DNA of 64,000 nt, taken from Pogonophryne albipinna (taxonomy: Eukaryota; Chordata; Actinopteri; Perciformes; Artedidraconidae). The DNA lies in contig JAPTMU010000036.1 of NCBI GenBank assembly GCA_028583405.1, positions 62,001 through 126,000 on the forward strand, given 5' to 3'. The position numbers were made by a program, and so were the translations under genes. The notes beneath the pieces are model-generated. The model was not told the DNA's origin, made no database searches, and saw only the letters and a list, made by a program, of their open reading frames with translations. Shown piece by piece: positions 4,991-36,354 of this stretch. The first letter of the stretch is position 1. Each line of letters begins with the position of its first letter.

Positions 4991-5500
4991 CATGAAAAGC
5001 CGCCAAATGTATCCGAATATACTGCTTCATAATGCAGGTAGAGTCCCCTGACAACTCCCCTTACATTCCTCCAGAGTATGGAAATACTCTGTTATCTTTT
5101 TGGAGAACCATAAAAAAGGGGTGAAAATGGATAAAAGTACCCCAAAATAGTGTTCCATAAGGCGGGTAGAGTTCCCTGACAACTCCCCTTACATTCCTCC
5201 AGAGGCAGAAAAAGTTCAAGTTAACTTTTGGAAGAACCATAGAAAAGGGTGAAAATGGATAAAATGTATCCGAAAATAGTGCACCATAATGCAGGTAAAG
5301 TCCCCTGACAACTCCCCTTACATTCCTCCAGAGGCAGAAAAAGTAAGTTAACTTTTGGAAGAACCAGAGGAAGGGGTGAAAATGGATAAATTGTATCCCA
5401 AAATAGTGTCTCATAATTACGTGACAACGCCCCTTGTATTCCTCCAGAGGCACGTTCAAAAACTTAAAGTGTGTTAAGAACCATGATTGGGGGTCCTCCA
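4985..5500. repeat. Diverged tandem monomers (about 110-130 bp)
   Basis: CTTACATTCCTCCAGAG recurs near 5063, 5191 and 5317. ACTTTTGGAAGAACCA and GGGGTGAAAATGGATAAA recur between them. The array ends by rejoining the 116-bp monomer type (GTTAAGAACCATGATT near 5474). Confidence 0.75.
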
Positions 5501-22233: not shown

Positions 22234-25200
22234 ACGACCAAATAGGTTGTTTGTTCAAGCGCTTAATACGACCTATAATCACGTTTTAAAGTTTACGACC
22301 TCTAGTGCTCCCGTTGATTGCAAACGTTATAGAGGGTCGTTTATTCACAAATAACCCTGACCATTGTAGGACAGTTTGGCCATTAAAATGCTTTTTGATT
22401 AGATTTCTAGCGAGAAGTGTATATTGTACTTTTAGAATCCACGTCCAGTGGATGTGTAGGATCTATAGTTTGATAGATATTACGAAGATCATTTGAGATT
22501 TCGCCAGGAGAAAGTGTATATGCGGCAGCTTCCATGTAAAGTTAGCGTCAACCCTCACGGGGTGAAAACAGTATTTCCGGTCTCGAAGTTTTCATAATAA
22601 AACCAATGATCAAATGATTTAACAGTGATATCTGCAGTACTCATCAGTTTATCCTTGTTTATTATACGACATTTATTGGTTTAAATTGTGTACAATGCTT
22701 TTGTGTTTTTCCCATAGGTTTTTCACTTTCGATTCTGAGAGACACATTTATTTTTTCAGAGGTTTTGATAGGCTAAAACATCGATTGTTTTAGCCGCAAT
22801 GCACGTCGGGATATGGTCTTTGTGTGATATGAAATCGGAAAACATAAAAAAAAAATGAAATAATACTTTATTCCGAGTGTTCTTGCTTTTCTCTTTGGAA
22901 GTCATCACAAAACGGCATTGTAATACACGGTTCAGCTGCATTAAATATTACACATCTGCCGTAGTTCTTTATTTATAGAGCCCGATGAGAAGACTTCATG
23001 ACGAACTGGAAGAAAGGCCGCCGAAACTGAATACGTGACGTGGATCATAAATATATTAGCAATTAAACAACATCTTCCATTTATTTTCCCACAATACGTC
23101 TCCTTGCAGTATCAACTGACTTTTATATTTGATCCAATTGGTAGATAGGCTGTATTTACACCATAACCATAAGGACAAACTCCATGTCTCCCTAGAAATC
23201 CTTCATGCTTGCCTTGCTGACTACCAGACGGCAGTCAAAGCAGCCAAAACACAGCAGATTTCTCTGTTAATCTCCAAAAACAGCCATAAACCTCAGGTTC
23301 TTTTTAATGTCCTTAACTCGATCATTAATCCCTGTGATGTTTCTCCAATTGTGCCATCGACTACTCTCTGTGATAAGTTTCTTACATTTTTTATTGAAAA
23401 AGTATCTGCTCTTAGGCTAGCCCATACTAGTGCTACCCCAGATCCTGCTCCCTTTCTGTGCCCTGCTGTCCTCTACCACTTTGAGCCTGTATCCCTCTCT
23501 TCTCTCTCGGATGTTGTCATGCACCTGCGGCCGACAAACTGCACCTCAGACAGCATTCCCTCTCGCCTTCTCAGAGACGTTTTCGAATCAGTTGGAGTAA
23601 GTATTTTATTACTTATAAACACCTCTTTTAGCTCAGGATGTGTCCCAGCTATCTTCAAACATGCCGTGGTCAAGCGAGCCACTACTTAAAAATAAAAATC
23701 TTGACCCCTCCATTCTCGCAAATGTTAGGCCCATTTCCCAGCTACCTTTTTTATCTAAAGCCCTGGAGCGAGTAGTCTATGTCCAGCTGCAGTCGTTCTT
23801 AACCACGCATGGCATCCATGAAAAGTTTCAGTCTGGCTTTAAACCCATGCATAGCACTGAAACAGCCAAACAGAGTTTTTAATGATCTGCTCCTAGCCGC
23901 CGACTCAGGTAGCCCAGCTGTCCTGGTGCTGTTAGACCTGACAGCTGCCTTTGACACTGTGGACCATAGCATCCTGTTGTCACGGCTTGAGCAGTCCGCA
24001 GGCATCACAGGCTCTGCCCTTGCATGGTTCAGGTCTTACCTGACAGACCGTAGCTTTTTAGTGCAGCTAGGTGCCTTCTCCTCTGCCAAAGCCCTTCTTA
24101 CCTGTGGGGTCCCCCAAGGCTCAATTCTGGGCCCCATCCTCTTTTTACTGTACATACTGCCCCTAGGTTCAATTCTCACGAAACACAATATTCCCTTCCA
24201 CTGCTACGTGGACGATGTACAGATCTATTTGCCTCTCAAAGCAAATGTCAACTCACTACAGAAGTTGATGGACTGCTTAACAGAGATAAAATCCTGGCTG
24301 AGCAAAAACTTCCTCAACCTCAATGAGAGCAAGACCGAGGTAATCTTTTTTGGACCCCAAACTCCAGCCTCTCCGGTTGATATTCTGGGCTCCCTAAGTA
24401 AAAACATCCTCCCCTCTGTCATGAACCTTGGAGTGACCTTCAATAGCACTTTTAAATTCGACAAGCAGGTCAGCACCGTAGTAAAATCCTGCTTTTTTAA
24501 AATAAGACTATTGGTCAAAACCAAGTCGTATTTATCTTTTAAAGACCTGGAAAGGGTTATTAACGCCTTTGTGACCTCAAGACTGGACTATTGTAACGCT
24601 CTGCATGTGGGTATGGACCAGGCATCAATTAAAGACCTGCAGCTAGTCCAAAACGCAGCTGCACGTCTCCTGACTGGCCACAAAAAGCGTGACCACATCA
24701 CCCCAATTCTGGCCTCACTACACTGGCTTCCAGTCCGGTTCAGAATTGATTTTAAAATCCTTTTATTTGTTTTTAAAGCACTAAATGGGTTGGCCCCGGC
24801 CTATATAGCTGAACTCCTCCAGCGCTACACCCCAGGCAGAGCCTTAAGATCTGCTGACCAGCTGCTGCTGGTAGTGCCTAAGACCAGGCTCAAAACCCGA
24901 GGGCACCGAGCCTTCGCAGCAGCTGGCCCCAGGCTCTGGAACACTCTTCCCCTCCATGTGAGGTCGGCCCAGACCCTAGGGGCTTTTAAATCCACACTGA
25001 AGACACTACTTCTCTCTGGCCTTCTAGTTAGAGTGGGGTCATGACTCCTGACTGTTCCATGTGTTGTTTTTTTATCTGTTGTGATTTATTGTCTTTTATT
25101 GTGATGTAATGTGTTTTTATGTGTTTAAATTACATGTACAGCACTTTGGCTTGACCAAAATCGTTTTTAAATGTGCTCTACAAATAAATTTGTATTTTAT

Positions 25201-27203: not shown

Positions 27204-27861
27204 TGAACACAAAAGTTTTATAAACAAGAATGATTTTTTTTCTCCTAAGCTGGAACTAATAACTAGTTTACCATTTGAGAAGAGAGATCTCATAAACCGA
27301 GAAGTGACGTTTCAAGCTCAATTCGTAAATAATAAAAATACTTTCTTCACATTGACAACCTCTTGAGCCCGATTGCCCCCGCCGGCGGGGGCAGATGCAA
27401 CATCTTGCAAGAAACAGCGTCTCAAGGCTTCTTAACATTTAACAACCTAGTAATGATGCATACCCACTTAACGGGAAGAAACTTAGCTAACTGACGACAT
27501 TAACTATTTTGACCTAAACGGAACAGAAGTCTAACGCCAAGTGTCTGAATCACAACTTAGCGAAACATGCTAACGCATCATTAGCACATAACTCGGGACA
27601 AAGTCATATTATCTGCACAAACTACATATCATATGAAAGCTGAGATTCCACAGATTCCATTGGTAAAATGGAAAACTCACTGAACTAGCAGCCAGGAAAG
27701 AGCAAGAAGAAAACAACTTCTGTTTACAGAGCCAAGAGGATAATTTTGTCTTACCTTTGCTGTTTTGTGATCAAAAGTTGTGTTCAAGGGCATAAAAACG
27801 CTGATGAAGGTTAATCCAATGTCTCTGTGTCACTTTGAAATGATTACTGATAATCCATCAT
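27204..27861. other. Non-coding spacer between the MITE and the palindromic element
   Basis: No gene. A small CG hairpin (GCCCCCGCCGGCGGGGGC) lies at 27375-27392. The final CATCAT (27856-27861) is the target duplication of the next element. Confidence 0.5.
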
Positions 27862-28035
27862 AGTAGTTATAAGGATGCCGCTTTCGTCTCATTAGTATGC
27901 ATAAAAAAGTGACAGGTGACACGCCCCCGATTATGCAAATGAGCTAAGTCCCGCCTCCATTGTTCGAGACCCTTTGATGTGATTGGGTACAATCATGTTA
28001 ATGAGCTAAGTCCCGCCTCCCATTGTTCGAGATCT

Positions 28036-28445
28036 TTTGATGTGAGATAACAGGTAGGTGTGAAAAGCCCCCCAGGGTAGTGCTTTTGTTGTCTATTTCT
28101 TTGATGTGTTGATTAATGCAGTCTCTTTGAAGTTATGTTGTATGGCCCCTGTCCCCCCTTGTAGTCTAATTCTTTGATGTGAGATAAAAGGTAGGTGTGA
28201 AAAGCCCCCCAGGGTAGTGCCTTTGTTGTCTATTTCTTTGATGTGTTGATTAAGGTAGTCTCTTTGAAGTTATGTTGTCTGGCCCCTGTCCCCCCTTGTA
28301 GTCTAATTCTTTGATGTGAGATAATAGGTAGGTGTGAAAAGCCCCCCAGGGTAGTGCTTTTGTTGTCTATTTCTTTGATGTGTTGATTAATGCAGTCTCT
28401 TTGAAGTTACGCTGTCTGGTCCCCTCAGGGTTGTATAATCTAATT
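28036..28445. repeat. 137-bp tandem repeats in the left arm of the palindromic element
   Basis: TTTGATGTGAGATAA recurs at 28036, 28173 and 28310. Each unit has GAAAAGCCCCCCAGGGTAGT and TTGATGTGTTGATTAA. The mirrored array is at 35800-36235. Confidence 0.9.
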
Positions 28446-28959
28446 AGCCTGTGATGTTATCCCCTTTGAGGTGGTGTGTTATAAGCCTTTTGATGTTAAT
28501 CTAGGTGTGTCTTTTGAAGTTATGTGTGAGACTGTCTAACCCCCTCCCCGCCCAGGCCTCCCCCCCCCCCTTTCTCCACCCCCTTCCTTTAGGGACTGAG
28601 GCTATCAGATAGGGGGAATTAGATGAAAATAGAAATATACTCAAATTAAAAAGACAGTAATTTCCACTTACCAAGTCACCTTGCAAAAAAGAAAAATGGC
28701 CAAGAGACGCCTGTGACAACTTACCGCCATCCGTCCGGAGCGCCAGTCAAGAAACGAATGCCTCAGCGGGGCGGGAGACAGACGCCTACAGCCAGAGATC
28801 TTTGCATAAACTTATCTCGTGCCCTCTTTTTGGTCATGTGGAGCGCGTTCATGTGTGCTGGAGGAGGGGCTATGTGAGGAAGTGGCAGATTTTCGGTTGT
28901 GTACTTTCAAATTCTCGCTCACTGGAGCTGGTTTCTCCAAAATGAACGCACACGCACAC

Positions 28960-28961
28960 GC

Positions 28962-29014
<53 letters not shown>
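28960..29014. repeat. (CA)n microsatellite, left arm
   Basis: A run of about 25 CA units, preceded by three CACACG/CACG variants. Its mirror is the (TG)n at 35252-35308. Confidence 0.97.
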
Positions 29015-29018
<4 letters not shown>

Positions 29019-29359
29019 GGAGTTGGCTTTTGGTGTGGGGGTTAGAGATAAGCCTGGTATGTTAATCTATATGTTGATTAAGACACTCTCTGTGAGGTGA
29101 GAAGCGAGGGGTTGGAGTTAGTCTTTAAAAATAAATACGCTCAAAACTAAATAAAACAGCCATTAATTTTCACTCACTAAGACACCTAAAAACGTTATTG
29201 TCCTCTCTAGATTTGATTCAGGGTTTTGCTTTAAATTATTAGTGCTTGCTAAGGATGTTTTCTTTTCAAGTTTTTGTGAAACTGTTAACTACAAGGAAGT
29301 ATCTGTTTTTGCAAAGAAGGTATTCATATTCATTTAAAAAAGATCTTATTTAGGTTTTT

Positions 29360-30099
29360 GTGTACTACACTCCTTCTAATCCAGGGAGTTTAGGAGGTGT
29401 GGATAAACTCCATAGAGCTGTACAGAATGAAATGGGTAAACAAGTAAATGTAGAGAAAGTCAGAGAATATTTATCTGAGCAGGATGCATATACTTTGCAT
29501 AAGCTGGCTCGGGTGCATTTTGTAAGAAACAGAGTTTTCGTACTCAGACCGCTACAACAATTTCAAGCAGATCTTTGCGATATGCAGTCACTTTCCAAAT
29601 ATAATGATGGTTTTAATTATTTGTTAACAGTCGTAGATGTATTTTCGAACAAAAAGCCTATGCTCAGGCATTAAAGAAGAAGACGGGCATAGAGGTTACC
29701 AAGGCCTTTGATACAATTTTAACACACAGTCAGATGCCCAAAAAGATACAAACAGACGCAGGGAAAGAATTCTTTAACAACGTTTTTCAAACCTTATTGA
29801 AGAAACGAGGTATTGCACATTATGCAACAGCCAGTGATATGAAGGCATGTGTGGTAGAGAGATTTAACCGTACGCTGAAAACTAAAATGTGGCGGTATTT
29901 TACAGCTAAAAACACTCATAGATATATAGACGTCTTACCTGAACTAATTGAAAGTTACAATAATAGTTATCATCGAAGTATTAAAATGACACCAATGCAG
30001 GTGACCAAGGAAAATGCGGCTCAAGTGTTTCGGAACCTGTATACCCCCTCTGGCCTTCCTAAAAAAGCTGCTGCCAAAATGAACTTTAAGGGTATTTGA
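29360..30099 (+). pseudogene. Polinton-type integrase, left-arm copy, one frameshift
   Basis: The first frame (29360-29674) reads YYTPSNPGSLGGVDKL, then a basic helical region, then QADLCDMQSLSKYNDGFNYL and LTVVDVF. This is the retrovirus-like core as Polintons carry it, with the probable first catalytic Asp in QADLCDM. Reading continues in the next frame from about 29655 through KKTGIEVTKAFDTIL to QTDAGKEFFNNVF (second Asp, inside 29734-30099) and VVERFNRTLKTKMW (Glu), then NNSYHRSIKMTPMQVT. The shift is a single-base-type break at about 29645-29660. No chromodomain follows. The region 5' of YYTPS has stops, so the N-terminal zinc-binding part is missing. This arm keeps all three DDE residues. 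Confidence 0.85.
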
Positions 30100-30109
30100 T
30101 AAAAAAATA

Positions 30110-30785
30110 TGAGCAGAGTTATACATGGTAGTGGTCAGCTTTTAAACACAAAAGTGTATCTTTCGGTAACTTTCTGAGAGAATTTAAGCATAAATCTGTC
30201 AAATGTTCAAAACAGCCTTCACTGAAATAGCCTCAAAATCACAAACTGCCATTAAGAGTCAGAATCCTAACAAAATCTACTAAAACAAAGTACTTCATTA
30301 TCTACTTTTTCAGCTTTTAAAAAAGAAAAGTGTATCTTTCGGTAACTTTTTGAGAGAATTAAGCATAATTTTGTCAAATGGTCAAAACAGCCTCTGTTTT
30401 CAAGCCTCAAAATCACAAACTGCCATTAAGAGGCAGAATCCTAACGAAATCTACTGACACAGAGTACTTCATTATCTACTTTTTTCAGCTTTTATACACA
30501 AAAGTGTATCTTTCAGTAACTTTCTCAGAAAATGTAAACATAAATCTGTCAAATGTTCAAAACAGCCTTCACTGACATAGCCTCAAAATCACAAACTGTC
30601 ATTAAGAGTCAGATTCTTAACGAAATCTACTCAGAGTACTTCATGGTAGTGGTCAGCTTTTTTTACACAAAGTGTATCTTTCAGTAACTTTCTGAGAAAA
30701 TTAAGCATAAATCAGTCAAATGTTCAAAACAGCCTTCACTGAAATAGCCTCAAAATCACAAACTGCAACTTTTTAAACAGAGTCA
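30110..30785. repeat. Four 150-190 bp units, left arm (minus-like orientation)
   Basis: Each unit runs from CAGCTTT(T)AAA through GTGTATCTTTC(G/A)GTAACTTT, AAGCATAAAT, CAAATG(T/G)TCAAAACAGCC, CCTCAAAATCACAAACTG and TTAAGAG(T/G)CAGA. The same units occur in the other orientation at 30890-31610, 32690-33320 and 33495-34135. Confidence 0.9.
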
Positions 30786-30889
30786 GACATCGATGGACAT
30801 TATACTGGTGAAAAAGACACTCACTTTTGCAGAGGACTCAGCCTCCAACTCAACATAACAAGTCACACCCTCCTATGTTTTAAAAGCTG

Positions 30890-31615
30890 ACCACTACCAT
30901 GAGATTTCGTCAAGCATCTGACTCTTAATGGCAGTTTGTCATTTTGAGACTATTTCAGTGAAGACCGTTTTGAACATTTGACAGATTTATGCTTAATTCT
31001 CTCAAAAGGTTACCGAAAGATACACTTTTCTTTTTAAAAGCTGTCCACTACCATGAAAGTACTGGAGACTGCCCCTGTCTTGTCACATAGATTATACTAT
31101 CTGTGTCGTAGTAGAAAACTCTGTGCTGTAATTTCTCCAGTTCACTGTACAGTTTGTGATTTTGACGCTATTTCAGTGAAACAAGGCTGTTTTGAACATT
31201 TGACAGATTTATGCTTAAATTCTCTGAGAAAGTTACTGAGAGATACACTTTTGTGTATAAAAGCTGACCACTACCACGAAGTACTCTGTTTGAGTAGATT
31301 TTGTTAGGATTCTGACTCTTAATGGCAGTTTGTGATTTTGAGGCTATTTCAGTGAAGGCTGTTTTGAACATTTGACTGATTTATGCTTAATTTTCTCAGA
31401 AGGTTACTGAAAGATACACTTTGTGTATAAAAAGCTGACCACTACCATGAAGTACTCTGAGTAGCTTTCGTTAAGAATCTGACTCTTAATGACAGTTTGT
31501 GATTTTGAGGCTATGTCAGTGAAGGCTATTTTGAACATTTGACAGATTTATGTTTAAATTCTCTGAGAAAGTTACTGAAAGATACACTTTGTGTATAAAA
31601 GCTGAAAAGTAGGCG
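30890..31615. repeat. Four further units in the opposite orientation, core
   Basis: CTTAATGGCAGTTTG(T)GATTTTGAGG, TTTTGAACATTTGAC(A/T)GATT and GATACACTTT recur about every 170-190 bp. Together with 30110-30785 they form a local inverted repeat centred near 30830. Confidence 0.85.
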
Positions 31616-32515
31616 TTGTAGTTTTTTCATCTATCATTTCCAACCAAGCAGCAATAGGTCAAATTTAAGAATAAGTAATAGTTTGTCAAGATTTTGCAGA
31701 ACAAGTCAAAAGTATAGTTTGTCAGAAAATATGGAAAAGTCATTGTGTACAAAATAGTATGTTGAAAATCAAAAAGAAAAGAAACTCTATTCATTACAAA
31801 TTAATGAATATTTTACCCAGTTCTAAAGTTTTGCACCCCTTAAAGAAAACCCCATTCCTACCAAGTACTTCATATTATACCCTTTGTTATGTGTTGCGTA
31901 CATCAAGGTGTATCTTAAAGTATCTTGGTAGCAGAAAATAACTAAAATATGTAAGGTTATCAGTAAAGAAAAAACCTTGTTTAACTGTATAAGTGTTTTT
32001 ACAGCAATAAAAAAAACCCTGCCATTAAAAGAAAACCAAATTCCTTACAAAAGTACTTCATATTCTACCATGTGTTAAGTGTTGCATACGCCAAAGTGTG
32101 TCTAAAAGTATCTTATTAACATAAGAAAAGAGAAAAAAGTGTTGATGTTAACAAAAACTGGATTGTTCCACTGAAATAATATATAAATAATTTCAAAAAG
32201 TGCGTTTAAAAGAAAATGAATTCAGATAAAGTATTTTGTTAGAATATTAAGTCCAAGATGGTTACATTTTTTACCCCTTAAACCATTTGTATTATATTTT
32301 TGTTTTCCTAATAAAGACAGAGTCACTTGAATTAATTTTATCTCCATACCTTTTTTTATTTTTTACATTTTGTAACAATCTTTAAACATTTGTAGAGACC
32401 AAACACTGTGGTTAAAATGAGTGTCTTTATGACGTCTCTCACACAGTTGGTATTTTTCACAAGATTCATTTTTAAACACATCATCTTGATACAGAGATAA
32501 CACATTTTCGTAAGA
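31616..32515. other. AT-rich unique core of the palindromic element
   Basis: No coding frame above 60 codons and no domain. TTACAAA(A)GTACTTCATATT(A/C)TACC occurs twice (near 31858 and 32053), a small internal duplication. Confidence 0.5.
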
Positions 32516-34137
32516 CCTTTTACATAGGTAGAAAACACAATGCTTTTCTTTTAGGGGTCTTTAGTTTTAAATGATCTGGTGAGGAGGGTGTGACTTGTTA
32601 TGTTGAGTTGGAGGCTGAGTCCTCTGCAAAAGTGAGTGTCTTTTTCACCAGTATAATGTCCATCGATGTCTGACTCTGTTTAAAAAGTTGCAGTTTGTGA
32701 TTTTGAGGCTATTTCAGTGAAGGCTGTTTTGAACATTTGACTGATTTATGCTTAATTTTCTCAGAAAGTTACTGAAAGATACACTTTGTGTAAAAAAAGC
32801 TGACCACTACCATGAAGTACTCTGAGTAGATTTCGTTAAGAATCTGACTCTTAATGACAGTTTGTGATTTTGAGGCTATGTCAGTGAAGGCTGTTTTGAA
32901 CATTTGACGGATTTATGTTTAAATTCTCTGAGAAAGTTACTGAAAGATACACTTTTGTGTATAAAAGCTGAAAAAAGTAGATAATGAAGTACTCTGTGTC
33001 AGTAGATTTCGTTAGGATTCTGCCTCTTAATGGCAGTTTGTGATTTTGAGGCTTGAAAACAGAGGCTGTTTTGACCATTTGACAAAATTATGCTTAATTC
33101 TCTCAAAAAGTTACCGAAAGATACACTTTTCTTTTTTAAAAGCTGAAAAAGTAGATAATGAAGTACTTTGTTTTAGTAGATTTTGTTAGGATTCTGACTC
33201 TTAATGGCAGTTTGTGATTTTGAGGCTATTTCAGTGAAGGCTGTTTTGAACATTTGACAGATTTATGCTTAAATTCTCTCAGAAAGTTACCGAAAGATAC
33301 ACTTTTGTGTTTAAAAGCTGTTATGACCTTTTACATAGGTAGAAAACACAATGCTTTTCTTTTAGGGGTCTTTAGTTTTAAATGATCTGGTGAGGAGGGT
33401 GTGACTTGTTATGTTGAGTTGGAGGCTGAGTCCTCTGCAAAAGTGAGTGTCTTTTTCACCAGTATAATGTCCATCGATGTCTGACTCTGTTTAAAAAGTT
33501 GCAGTTTGTGATTTTGAGGCTATTTCAGTGAAGGCTGTTTTGAACATTTGACTGATTTATGCTTAATTTTCTCAGAAAGTTACTGAAAGATACACTTTGT
33601 GTAAAAAAAGCTGACCACTACCATGAAGTACTCTGAGTAGATTTCGTTAAGAATCTGACTCTTAATGACAGTTTGTGATTTTGAGGCTATGTCAGTGAAG
33701 GCTGTTTTGAACATTTGACAGATTTATGTTTACATTTTCTGAGAAAGTTACTGAAAGATACACTTTTGTGTATAAAAGCTGAAAAAAGTAGATAATGAAG
33801 TACTCTGTGTCAGTAGATTTCGTTAGGATTCTGCCTCTTAATGGCAGTTTGTGATTTTGAGGCTTGAAAACAGAGGCTGTTTTGACCATTTGACAAAATT
33901 ATGCTTAATTCTCTCAAAAAGTTACCGAAAGATACACTTTTCTTTTTTAAAAGCTGAAAAAGTAGATAATGAAGTACTTTGTTTTAGTAGATTTTGTTAG
34001 GATTCTGACTCTTAATGGCAGTTTGTGATTTTGAGGCTATTTCAGTGAAGGCTGTTTTGAACATTTGACAGATTTATGCTTAAATTCTCTCAGAAAGTTA
34101 CCGAAAGATACACTTTTGTGTTTAAAAGCTGACCACT
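32514..34137. repeat. Direct duplication of an 812-bp block, right side of core
   Basis: GACCTTTTACATAGGTAGAAAA occurs at 32514 and 33326. The following 800 bp, including TCCTCTGCAAAAGTGAGTGT and four of the 150-190 bp units, are nearly the same in both. Only the second copy is the mirror of the left arm, so the duplication broke the symmetry after or while the arms formed. Confidence 0.85.
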
Positions 34138-34167
34138 ACCATGTATAACTCTGCTCATATTTTTTTA

Positions 34168-34907
34168 TCAAATACCCTTAAAGTTCATTTTGGCAGCAGC
34201 TTTTTTAGGAAGGCCAGAGGGGGTATACAGGTTCCGAAACACTTGAGCCGCATTTTCCTTGGTCACCTGCATTGGTGTCATTTTAATACTTCGATGATAA
34301 CTATTATTGTAACTTTCAATTAGTTCAGGTAAGACGTCTATATATCTATGAGTGTTTTTAGCTGTAAAATACCGCCACATTTTAGTTTTCAGCGTACGGT
34401 TAAATCTCTCTACCACACATGCCTTCATATCACTGGCTGTTGCATAATGTGCAATACCTCGTTTCTTCAATAAGGTTTGAAAAACGTTGTTAAAGAATTC
34501 TTTCCCTGCGTCTGTTTGTATCTTTTTGGGCATCTGACTGTGTGTTAAAATTGTATCAAAGGCCTTGGTAACCTCTATGCCCGTCTTCTTCTTTAATGCC
34601 TGAGCATAGGCTTTTTGTTCGAAAATACATCTACGACTGTTAACAAATAATTAAAACCATCATTATATTTGGACAGTGACTGCATATCGCAAAGATTTGC
34701 TTGAAATTGTTGTAGCGGTCTGAGTACGAAAACTCTGTTTCTTACAAAATGCACCCGAGCCGGCTTATGCAAAGTATATGCATCCTGCTCAGATAAATAT
34801 TCTCTGACTTTCTCTACATTTATTTGTTTACCCATTTCATTCTGTACAGCTCTATGGAGTTTATCCACACCTCCTAAACTCCCTGGATTAGAAGGAGTGT
34901 AGTACAC
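34168..34907 (-). pseudogene. Polinton-type integrase, right-arm copy, frameshift plus D-to-N change
   Basis: Mirror image of the left-arm integrase, with the same frame break at the same place. The C-terminal part (34533-34168) translates identically to the left copy. The N-terminal part differs at three residues: V to I in GKQINVEK, L to P in LHKPARV, and D to N in QANLCDM (codon GAT to AAT). The last lies at the probable first catalytic Asp, so this copy looks catalytically dead even apart from the frameshift. Confidence 0.85.
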
Positions 34908-35248
34908 AAAAACCTAAATAAGATCTTTTTTAAATGAATATGAATACCTTCTTTGCAAAAACAGATACTTCCTTGTAGTTAACAGTTTCACAAAAACTTG
35001 AAAAGAAAACATCCTTAGCAAGCACTAATAATTTAAAGCAAAACCCTGAATCAAATCTAGAGAGGACAATAACGTTTTTAGGTGTCTTAGTGAGTGAAAA
35101 TTAATGGCTGTTTTATTTAGTTTTGAGCGTATTTCTTTTTAAAGACTAACTCCAACCCCTCGCTTCTCACCTCACAGAGAGTGTCTTAATCAACATATAG
35201 ATTAACATACCAGGCTTATCTCTAACCCCCACACCAAAAGCCAACTCC

Positions 35249-35251
<3 letters not shown>

Positions 35252-35308
<57 letters not shown>
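35252..35308. repeat. (TG)n microsatellite, right arm
   Basis: Mirror of the left-arm (CA)n. It ends in GCGCGCGTGCGTGCG, so the variant bases differ from the left arm. Confidence 0.97.
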
Positions 35309-35318
<10 letters not shown>

Positions 35319-35799
35319 CGTGCGTTCATTTTGGAGAAACCAGCTCCAGTGAGTGAGAATTTGAAAGTACACAACCGAAAATCTGCCACTTCCTCACATA
35401 GCCCCTCCTCCAGCACACATGAACGAGCTCCACATGACCAAAAAGAGGGCACGTGATAAGTTTATGCAAAGATCTCTGGCTGTAGGCGTCTGACTCCCGC
35501 CCCGCTGAGGCATTCGTTTCTTGACTGGCGCTCCGGACGGATGGCGGTAAGTTGTCACAGGCGTCTCTTGGCCATTTTTCTTTTTTGCAAGGTGACTTGG
35601 TAAGTGGAAATTACTGTCTTTTTAATTTGAGTATATTTCTATTTTCATCTAATTCCCCCTATCTGATAGCCTCAGTCCCTAAAGGAAGGGGGTGGAGAAA
35701 GGGGGGGGGGGGAGGCCTGGGCGGGGAGGGGGTTAGACAGTCTCACACATAACTTCAAAAGACACACCTAGATTAACATCAAAAGGCTTATAACACACC

Positions 35800-36235
35800 A
35801 CCTCAAAGGGGATAACATCACAGGCTAATTAGATTATACAACCCTGAGGGGACCAGACAGCGTAACTTCAAAGAGACTGCATTAATCAACACATCAAAGA
35901 AATAGACAACAAAAGCACTACCCTGGGGGGCTTTTCACACCTACCTATTATCTCACATCAAAGAATTAGACTACAAGGGGGGACAGGGGCCAGACAACAT
36001 AACTTCAAAGAGACTACCTTAATCAACACATCAAAGAAATAGACAACAAAGGCACTACCCTGGGGGGCTTTTCACACCTACCTGTTATCTCACATCAAAG
36101 AATTAGACTACAAGGGGGGACAGGGGCCATACAACATAACTTCAAAGAGACTGCATTAATCAACACATCAAAGAAATAGACAACAAAGGCACTACCCTGG
36201 GGGGCTTTTCACACCTACCTGTTATCTCACATCAA
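35800..36235. repeat. 137-bp tandem repeats, right arm
   Basis: Three units with ACTACCCTGGGGGGCTTTTC are the reverse complement of 28036-28445. The left arm additionally has a 54-bp duplication near 27965-28035 (GCTAAGTCCCGCCTCC twice) that the right arm lacks. Confidence 0.9.
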
Positions 36236-36354
36236 AAGATCTCGAACAATGGGAGGCGGGACTTAGCTCATTTGCATAATTGGGGGCGTGTCACCTGTCA
36301 CTTTGTTATGCATACTAATGAGACGAAAGCGGCATCATTATAACTACTCATCAT

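What the first reader, a model, noticed from the sequence alone, without database searches (positions are those of the whole stretch)
27862..36348. An 8.49 kb palindromic Polinton derivative with exact CATCAT target duplication
The sequence shows AGTAGTTATAA ends in mirror image, CATCAT immediately outside both, about 3 kb inverted arms and an integrase in each arm. Known Polintons have AG ends, 6-bp duplications, and terminal repeats of hundreds of bases up to about a kilobase, with a polymerase-capsid core between. Here the arms have grown to include the integrase, and the core genes are gone. It may be a new non-autonomous family, moved by a helper, whose termini have expanded to about 70 percent of its length.
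Basis: partly seen in the sequence, partly recalled or inferred. Interest (0 to 1): 0.9.

Follow-up and report, generated by a model that had tools for sequence, protein, structure and literature searches.

The report
Palindromic non-autonomous Maverick family in fish
A virus-like jumping element (Maverick/Polinton) in what is probably a fish genome has given rise to a family of mirror-image copies, each an inverted double of one end of the parent, and the element in this window looks like a centrally deleted member of that family.

Summary
Window 27862-36348 is flanked by CATCAT, has inverted AGTAGTTATAA ends and about 3-kb arms (99.2% over 2,890 bp), with a broken integrase in each arm. It is not a one-off: a degenerate pattern of its ends matches 113 sites in the host genome. 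Of 19 end pairs compared (window included), 16 have an exact 6-bp target duplication and 3 have one mismatch. Of 10 elements measured, 9 are 79-100% mirror-paired. Two polymerase-bearing Mavericks with the same end motif and exact duplications were checked and are possible helpers.
The reading changes in one respect: these are probably not termini that crept inward. Seven palindromes align at one axis of symmetry with a short asymmetric loop, and a pattern for that axis matches 148 sites. The likeliest history is one fold-back event making an inverted dimer of the integrase side, which then spread as a palindrome. The window element lacks the axis and is best read as centrally deleted. Its integrase is a fragment without chromodomain, so movement needs a helper. 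Origin by snap-back replication is inferred, not shown. Some relatives also carry an orphan ORF of about 369 aa, often tail to tail.

The parts
27856..27861 (.). left copy of the 6-bp target site duplication CATCAT
36349..36354 (.). right copy of the 6-bp target site duplication CATCAT
27862..30874 (+). left arm of the palindrome, from the AGTAGT end inward
   Evidence: 27990-30874 pairs with 36282-33393 at 99.2%; 27862-27982 pairs with 36348-36227 at 95%
33393..36348 (-). right arm of the palindrome
28036..28425 (+). 137-bp tandem repeats inside the left terminal repeat (2.8 copies)
35847..36236 (-). 137-bp tandem repeats inside the right terminal repeat (2.8 copies)
29360..30124 (+). broken integrase fragment (rve region, no chromodomain) in the left arm
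   Evidence: 98.8% over 732 bp plus a 35-bp piece to the integrase of the Maverick end at C12; same outer boundaries as in 5 other arms compared
34143..34907 (-). broken integrase fragment in the right arm
   Evidence: end points by mirroring the left fragment on the arm pairing
30135..30766 (+). array of about 174-bp repeats next to the left integrase fragment
33501..34132 (-). array of about 174-bp repeats next to the right integrase fragment
32511..34131 (.). 810-bp tandem duplication in the right arm (32511-33320 and 33322-34131, 99.5%)
30875..32510 (.). core left out of the main arm-to-arm pairing; it holds a further array of 174-bp type repeats (31149-31605). 30874-33145 is colinear (95%) with 3486-5741 of the relative L031 at C3:21576606; the family axis is missing here
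   Evidence: axis absence:

Best explanation
This is a non-autonomous derivative of a Maverick (Polinton) and a member of a palindromic family. Shown: (AGT)2 ends, 6-bp target duplications and integrase sequence in common with polymerase-bearing Mavericks of the same genome; most of the relatives measured are mirror images of one end, and seven of them align at one axis; the window element itself has only a truncated integrase. Inferred: the founding copy arose when a strand of a deleted Maverick genome folded back on itself at a short hairpin and was copied to its own end, giving an inverted dimer with the integrase-side terminus at both ends. Helper Mavericks supply the polymerase (protein-primed in known Mavericks) and the integrase in trans, so the palindrome is copied and inserted as a unit, and its arms are made alike again at each round because the displaced strand is self-complementary. 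After insertion, deletions near the axis and small duplications break the symmetry. The window element is such a centrally deleted copy.
For: Ends and duplications: 113 matches to a degenerate end pattern, 0 for the reversed control; of 19 end pairs, window included, 16 exact and 3 one-mismatch 6-bp duplications (two rows whose left end lies inside a longer pair were dropped). Outer flanks: of 17 comparisons 13 show no similarity, 3 only a short match of 60-176 bp, and 1 is the internal end at C5:9015595. Palindromy: 9 of 10 measured elements 79-100% mirror-paired; 35 of 37 neighbouring integrase hits under 30 kb face inward, and 0 of 10 long-frame (>=370 aa) integrases are in such pairs. Shared axis in 7 palindromes (sequence printed for 5); 148 axis sites, control 0; 9 C1 axes read in order of the list all have arm-like sequence on both sides, in one (L083) for only 78 bp on one side, and 4 are mirrored without a break over about 350 bp. 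Possible helpers: C18 and C23 elements with PF03175 matches, same end motif, exact duplications TACACC and CTCTCC; C23 also has a long-frame integrase. Integrase fragment boundaries identical in 6 arms compared. Arms of one element are sisters or identical in 6 of 8 elements. The window lacks the axis and its core is colinear with a single-sided relative.
Against: No non-palindromic ancestor carrying the axis was found: the 2.4 kb read from the middle of the C18 Maverick has no axis, and the single-sided type has only 3 junction matches, so it may be derived. The short hairpin at the axis folds no better than shuffles (z -0.62). Of 5 axes picked away from integrase hits, 2 are one-armed, and a further axis at C6 abuts a second terminus. 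In situ gene conversion could also keep arms alike. C11:20593833 has arms only about 91-94% alike, no integrase fragment in either arm, and its axis was not resolved. C6:22586521, 99% mirror-paired, has no matching duplication and lies beside an assembly problem. No reads, transcripts or replication intermediates were seen.
Confidence: 0.7

Rival explanations
1. Stepwise extension of terminal inverted repeats: gene conversion copied one arm's interior onto the other, so the window element is an element with expanded termini.
For: The window and C3:21576606 (38% mirror-paired) are partly palindromic, and recruitment of internal sequence into the repeats is described for Galileo (PMC3573991). 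The C5:9013497 copy shows arm copying that overshoots at least 1.5 kb into host flank. The window itself has no axis, so taken alone it fits this view too.
Against: Seven palindromes share one axis and are mirrored through it; 148 axis sites. Independent extensions would not stop at the same loop.
Confidence: 0.14
2. Assembly artefact: palindromic reads or collapsed repeats were built into the contigs.
For: Two places (C6:22578798 and C14:27216696) have gaps of N that end at the same contig start, and both share the adjoining stretch with C13, which looks like scaffolding of duplicate contigs.
Against: Different outer flanks with matching 6-bp duplications; arms that differ by substitutions and indels (best aligned stretches 98.6-99.9% in most); asymmetric centre and an 810-bp one-sided duplication in the window; no N in the window or in the 16 stretches L021-L036.
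Confidence: 0.06
3. A one-off chromosomal inverted duplication after insertion, unrelated to how the element moves.
For: C5:9013497 shows that fold-back events in place probably do happen: 270 bp of terminus, a GT run, an inverted copy of the right flank, then 12.5 kb with mirrored ends.
Against: The palindrome lies between matching target duplications in several elements, with the same axis.
Confidence: 0.03
4. An unrelated foldback repeat captured by a Maverick explains the axis, and the mirror arms grew around it.
For: Three axis sites (L075, L076 and L077, at C3:2443800, C6:34933900 and C6:15585400) do not continue as arms on one side.
Against: Elements fetched from end to end are mirror images, and 7 of the 9 fetched carry the Maverick integrase fragment in both arms; the 9 C1 axes sit between arm-like sequence.
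Confidence: 0.07

Closest known systems
Vertebrate Mavericks/Polintons (PMC8097293; section 7 and search passages read)
   Same: (AGT)2 ends, 6-bp target duplications, integrase with rve core near one end and read inward, terminal inverted repeats
   Different: Intact ones are 12.7-24.6 kb with terminal repeats of 46-1,447 bp and eight core genes; here the mirror arms are about 3-6.8 kb and in the window only an integrase fragment is left. In that main text 'palindrom', 'non-autonomous' and 'nonautonomous' occur 0 times
Galileo and other foldback transposons (PMC3573991; Discussion part 1 of 2 and search passages read)
   Same: Very long, internally repetitive inverted repeats; the longest repeats are in copies without the transposase ORF; copies made only of repeats outnumber nearly complete ones
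   Different: P-superfamily element, longest repeats about 1.26 kb; no common axis of whole-element inverted dimers in the parts read
Snapback genomes of adeno-associated virus (PMC8235507; abstract and outline read)
   Same: Defective double-stranded genomes in a snapback configuration, holding one end of the virus
   Different: Packaged virus genomes, not germline insertions; a different virus family and replication system (the last recalled)
Symmetric recombinant adenovirus 12 genomes, and Mu killer of maize (both recalled, no call supports them)
   Same: Inverted doubles of one end of a protein-primed virus; an inverted duplicate of a transposon that silences its parent
   Different: Neither is a Maverick; recalled only, and the one search for the adenovirus case found no paper

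Membership tests
Maverick/Polinton (intact) | (AGT)2 or (AG)3 end motif | tested here: met
   AGTAGT at both ends; motif described in PMC8097293
Maverick/Polinton (intact) | 6-bp target site duplication | tested here: met
   CATCAT; 16 of 19 pairs exact, 3 with one mismatch
Maverick/Polinton (intact) | integrase with rve core and chromodomain | tested here: not met
   window has a broken fragment; the full form with Chromo was seen in the C12 Maverick
Maverick/Polinton (intact) | protein-primed DNA polymerase B | tested here: not met
   78 PF03175 matches in the genome, none on contig C58; no ORF of 100 aa or more in the element but integrase pieces
Maverick/Polinton (intact) | capsid, ATPase and protease genes | tested here: inconclusive
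   no ORF of 100 aa or more in the element other than the integrase pieces; no capsid, ATPase or protease profile was run
Maverick/Polinton (intact) | terminal repeats of 46-1,447 bp, length 12.7-24.6 kb | tested here: not met
   arms about 3 kb in 8.5 kb; range
Non-autonomous Maverick derivative | ends shared with polymerase-bearing elements in the same genome | tested here: met
   C18 and C23 elements
Non-autonomous Maverick derivative | moved in trans by helper enzymes | not testable with these tools
   inferred from insertions with target duplications and absence of own intact enzymes
Foldback/Galileo transposons | inverted repeats make up most of the element and hold tandem repeats | tested here: met
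Foldback/Galileo transposons | P-superfamily transposase | tested here: not met
   the only coding remnant found in the element is a Maverick-type rve integrase

The most novel reading that the evidence does not exclude
The family is a set of heritable snap-back defective genomes: inverted dimers of the integrase side of a Maverick that replicate and integrate as palindromes at the expense of the full element, and whose mirrored integrase fragments (98-99.5% identical to the C12 Maverick integrase in 13 of 17 arms compared) could make hairpin RNA that silences their own helper.
Probability: 0.25. Interest if true: 0.85.

Novelty: new variant of a known kind. Interest (0 to 1): 0.66.

Why it matters
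How Mavericks replicate is, as far as I know, inferred from gene content (recalled); whole-element palindromes with one common axis would be a structural footprint of what happens to the DNA while it is copied. It would also mean that long, nearly perfect palindromes, generally regarded as unstable (recalled), persist in number in a vertebrate germline, and that defective-genome parasitism known from viruses may have left an inherited record.

Tried and rejected
Transduction of host DNA by the C6:22578798-22598823 copy: dropped, because N gaps and a shared contig start at C6 and C14 point to assembly duplication. The C3:21576606 copy as the ancestral monomer: not kept; its junction is found at only 3 sites and it may be a deletion product. 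A pre-existing axis hairpin in complete Mavericks: not found in the 2.4 kb read from C18; no other complete Maverick was read there. Selection on the integrase fragment: pN/pS against the C12 integrase 0.20 to 1.05 by arm (one arm has no synonymous change) and 0.49 pooled over pairs of 9 elements, which does not separate selection from inheritance. Hairpin strength at the axis: no better than shuffles. Integrase relatives in viral contigs: none found. Literature searches whose listings showed no palindromic Maverick: 20 of 44 papers listed; 20 of 33; 11 of 11; 11 of 11; 8 of 8; 7 of 7; 12 of 13; one search found no paper; two searches were run for foldback and snap-back comparisons (listings, 10 of 11 and 10 of 12).
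Full report
What is there. The window element is 8,487 bp (27862-36348), bounded by CATCAT on both sides and by inverted AGTAGTTATAA ends. Its arms pair over 2,890 bp at 99.2%. From the end inward each arm has a terminal repeat with 137-bp tandem units, a CA/GT run, a broken integrase fragment and an array of about 174-bp repeats. A core of about 1.6 kb stays outside the main arm-to-arm pairing, though it holds a further array of the same 174-bp type, and the right arm has an extra 810-bp tandem duplication.

A family. The first 169 bp match 40 places of the host genome at 96-100% (only 40 of 1,292 candidates were scored). A degenerate end pattern hits 113 sites and the reversed control none (only the first places are listed). 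I compared 19 inward-facing end pairs, window included, 3.2-27 kb apart: 16 have an exact 6-bp duplication and 3 have one mismatch. Two further rows were dropped because their left end lies inside a longer pair. One of the 19, C6:22578798, contains a run of N. Outer flanks were compared for 17 rows: 13 show no similarity, 3 a short match of 60-176 bp, and 1 is the internal end at C5 described below; the flanks of C16:2245626, C13:16353310, C3:21576606 and C14:12490965 were not compared in this way.

Palindromes. Nine elements fetched, plus the window, were scored for mirror pairing (hits of at least 100 nt and 90%, within 1.5 kb of the mirror position, so internal repeats can add to the figure): 1.00, 0.99, 0.99, 0.99, 0.98, 0.93, 0.91, 0.82, 0.79 (window) and 0.38 (C3:21576606). 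The nine were chosen because both ends matched the window's end well, so the share is not that of all copies. One of the 0.99 values is C6:22586521, which has no matching duplication and adjoins the assembly problem below. Among 151 integrase places (143 and 8 more) there are 37 neighbouring pairs under 30 kb: 35 face inward, 2 run the same way, none face outward, and none of the 10 long-frame integrases is in such a pair. The protein matches were the best 143 of 2,566 candidates, so the 71 unpaired places of the fragment type do not show that those elements are single-armed.

One axis. The centres of seven palindromes align with each other at the axis of symmetry; for the eighth, C11, it was not resolved. 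The axis was printed for five: they share the flanks, and four share an asymmetric loop of about 28 nt, in either orientation; C14:12490965 has lost part of it. A pattern for the axis hits 148 sites, control 0 (50 are listed). I read nine of the first ten listed axes on C1 (the tenth, L074, had been read before). All nine have arm-like sequence on both sides, in L083 for only 78 bp on one side; 4 are mirrored without a break over about 350 bp (90-99%) and 5 have changes near the axis. Of 5 axes chosen away from integrase hits, 3 have mirrored sequence in some form and 2 are one-armed. The site at C6:15585793 runs into another AGTAGT terminus just past the axis. So 148 is a count of axis sites, not of intact palindromes.

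Possible helpers. PF03175 finds 78 matches. The elements at C18:2974012-2993389 and C23:3081139-3109975 contain such matches, have the same end motif, and have exact duplications TACACC and CTCTCC. A Maverick end at C12, near another PF03175 match, has a 385-aa integrase with rve and chromodomain; its own end motif was not recognisable. The palindromes share with it terminal-repeat sequence and only codons about 33-298 of the integrase, with the same boundaries in 6 arms compared, at 97.5-99.5% (90.7% for the window's arms when missing bases are counted). Of the nine fetched elements, 7 carry the fragment in both arms, C3:21576606 in one, and C11:20593833 in none.

Arms evolve together. In a tree of a 1.07-kb arm segment, the two arms of one element are sisters or identical in 6 of 8 two-armed elements and unresolved in 2 (C11 could not be included). 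This fits renewal of identity at each round of copying, but conversion in place would look the same.

Fold-back in place. At C5:9013497-9028119 (duplication AACAGC) a 270-bp terminus and a GT run are followed by an inverted copy of the right host flank (99.2% over 1.5 kb), an inverted AACAGC and 12.5 kb whose ends mirror each other (98.7% over 1.5 kb) and whose midpoint falls on an axis site; its interior was not read. This is what repair of a broken palindrome by folding back and copying past its end would leave; it is one case.

The assembly problem. C6:22578798-22586520 and the stretch before C14:27216696 have gaps of N ending at the same contig start and share the stretch next to the C13:20193077 element. 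I first took this for host DNA carried along by an element and dropped that idea.

The window element. Its core is colinear (95%) with part of C3:21576606. It lacks the axis: no match to the axis flank with up to 2 mismatches, none to the loop with up to 3, and no axis-proximal arm sequence inside the element. I read it as a palindrome that lost its centre, but by itself it would also fit one-sided extension of the repeats.

A second ORF. One axis site lies beside an ORF whose 230-aa part has no Pfam match above a curated cut-off and two relatives in the large protein collection (a word-based search of limited reach). In this genome it has 151 matches, many in open frames of 367-369 aa. After merging split rows (150 rows to 145 places), 24 of 30 neighbouring pairs under 3 kb are tail to tail, 4 head to head and 2 in the same direction; most of the 24 are 200-400 nt apart. 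One such pair lies at the centre of an end pair at C15:33747823-33759898. Of the 50 listed axis sites only 2 have a scored match of this ORF within 2 kb, so it marks a part of the family or a related one.

Print. The vertebrate Maverick survey gives terminal repeats of 46-1,447 bp (section 7 read). Its main text has no 'palindrom' or 'non-autonomous'. The other searches were judged by listings only. Most subscription papers and all repeat databases lie outside what was searched, so a catalogue entry for such a family may exist.

Noticed in passing
L072 (C4:10469394-10470083) and other places: Orphan ORF of about 369 aa with a very basic middle, no Pfam match above cut-off, open in many copies, often tail to tail across a short gap.
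   Followed up: partly
C5:9013497-9028119 (L048, L049, L050): Element with an inverted copy of at least 1.5 kb of its right host flank inside it, as if repaired by folding back on itself.
   Followed up: partly
L077 (C6:15585793): Another Maverick terminus lies directly beside an axis hairpin, possibly a nested insertion near the hairpin.
   Followed up: no
C6:22579751-22586520 and C14:27209926-27216695: Stretches that match where read, next to N gaps at two scaffolds, and near-identical at C13: probable duplicate contigs in the assembly.
   Followed up: yes
window 23809-25044: 411-aa reverse transcriptase ORF (RVT_1, E 7e-22), probably a LINE remnant, upstream of the element.
   Followed up: no
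window 5005-5416: Several short matches (80-85%) to a piece of the family's axis-proximal arm outside the element.
   Followed up: no
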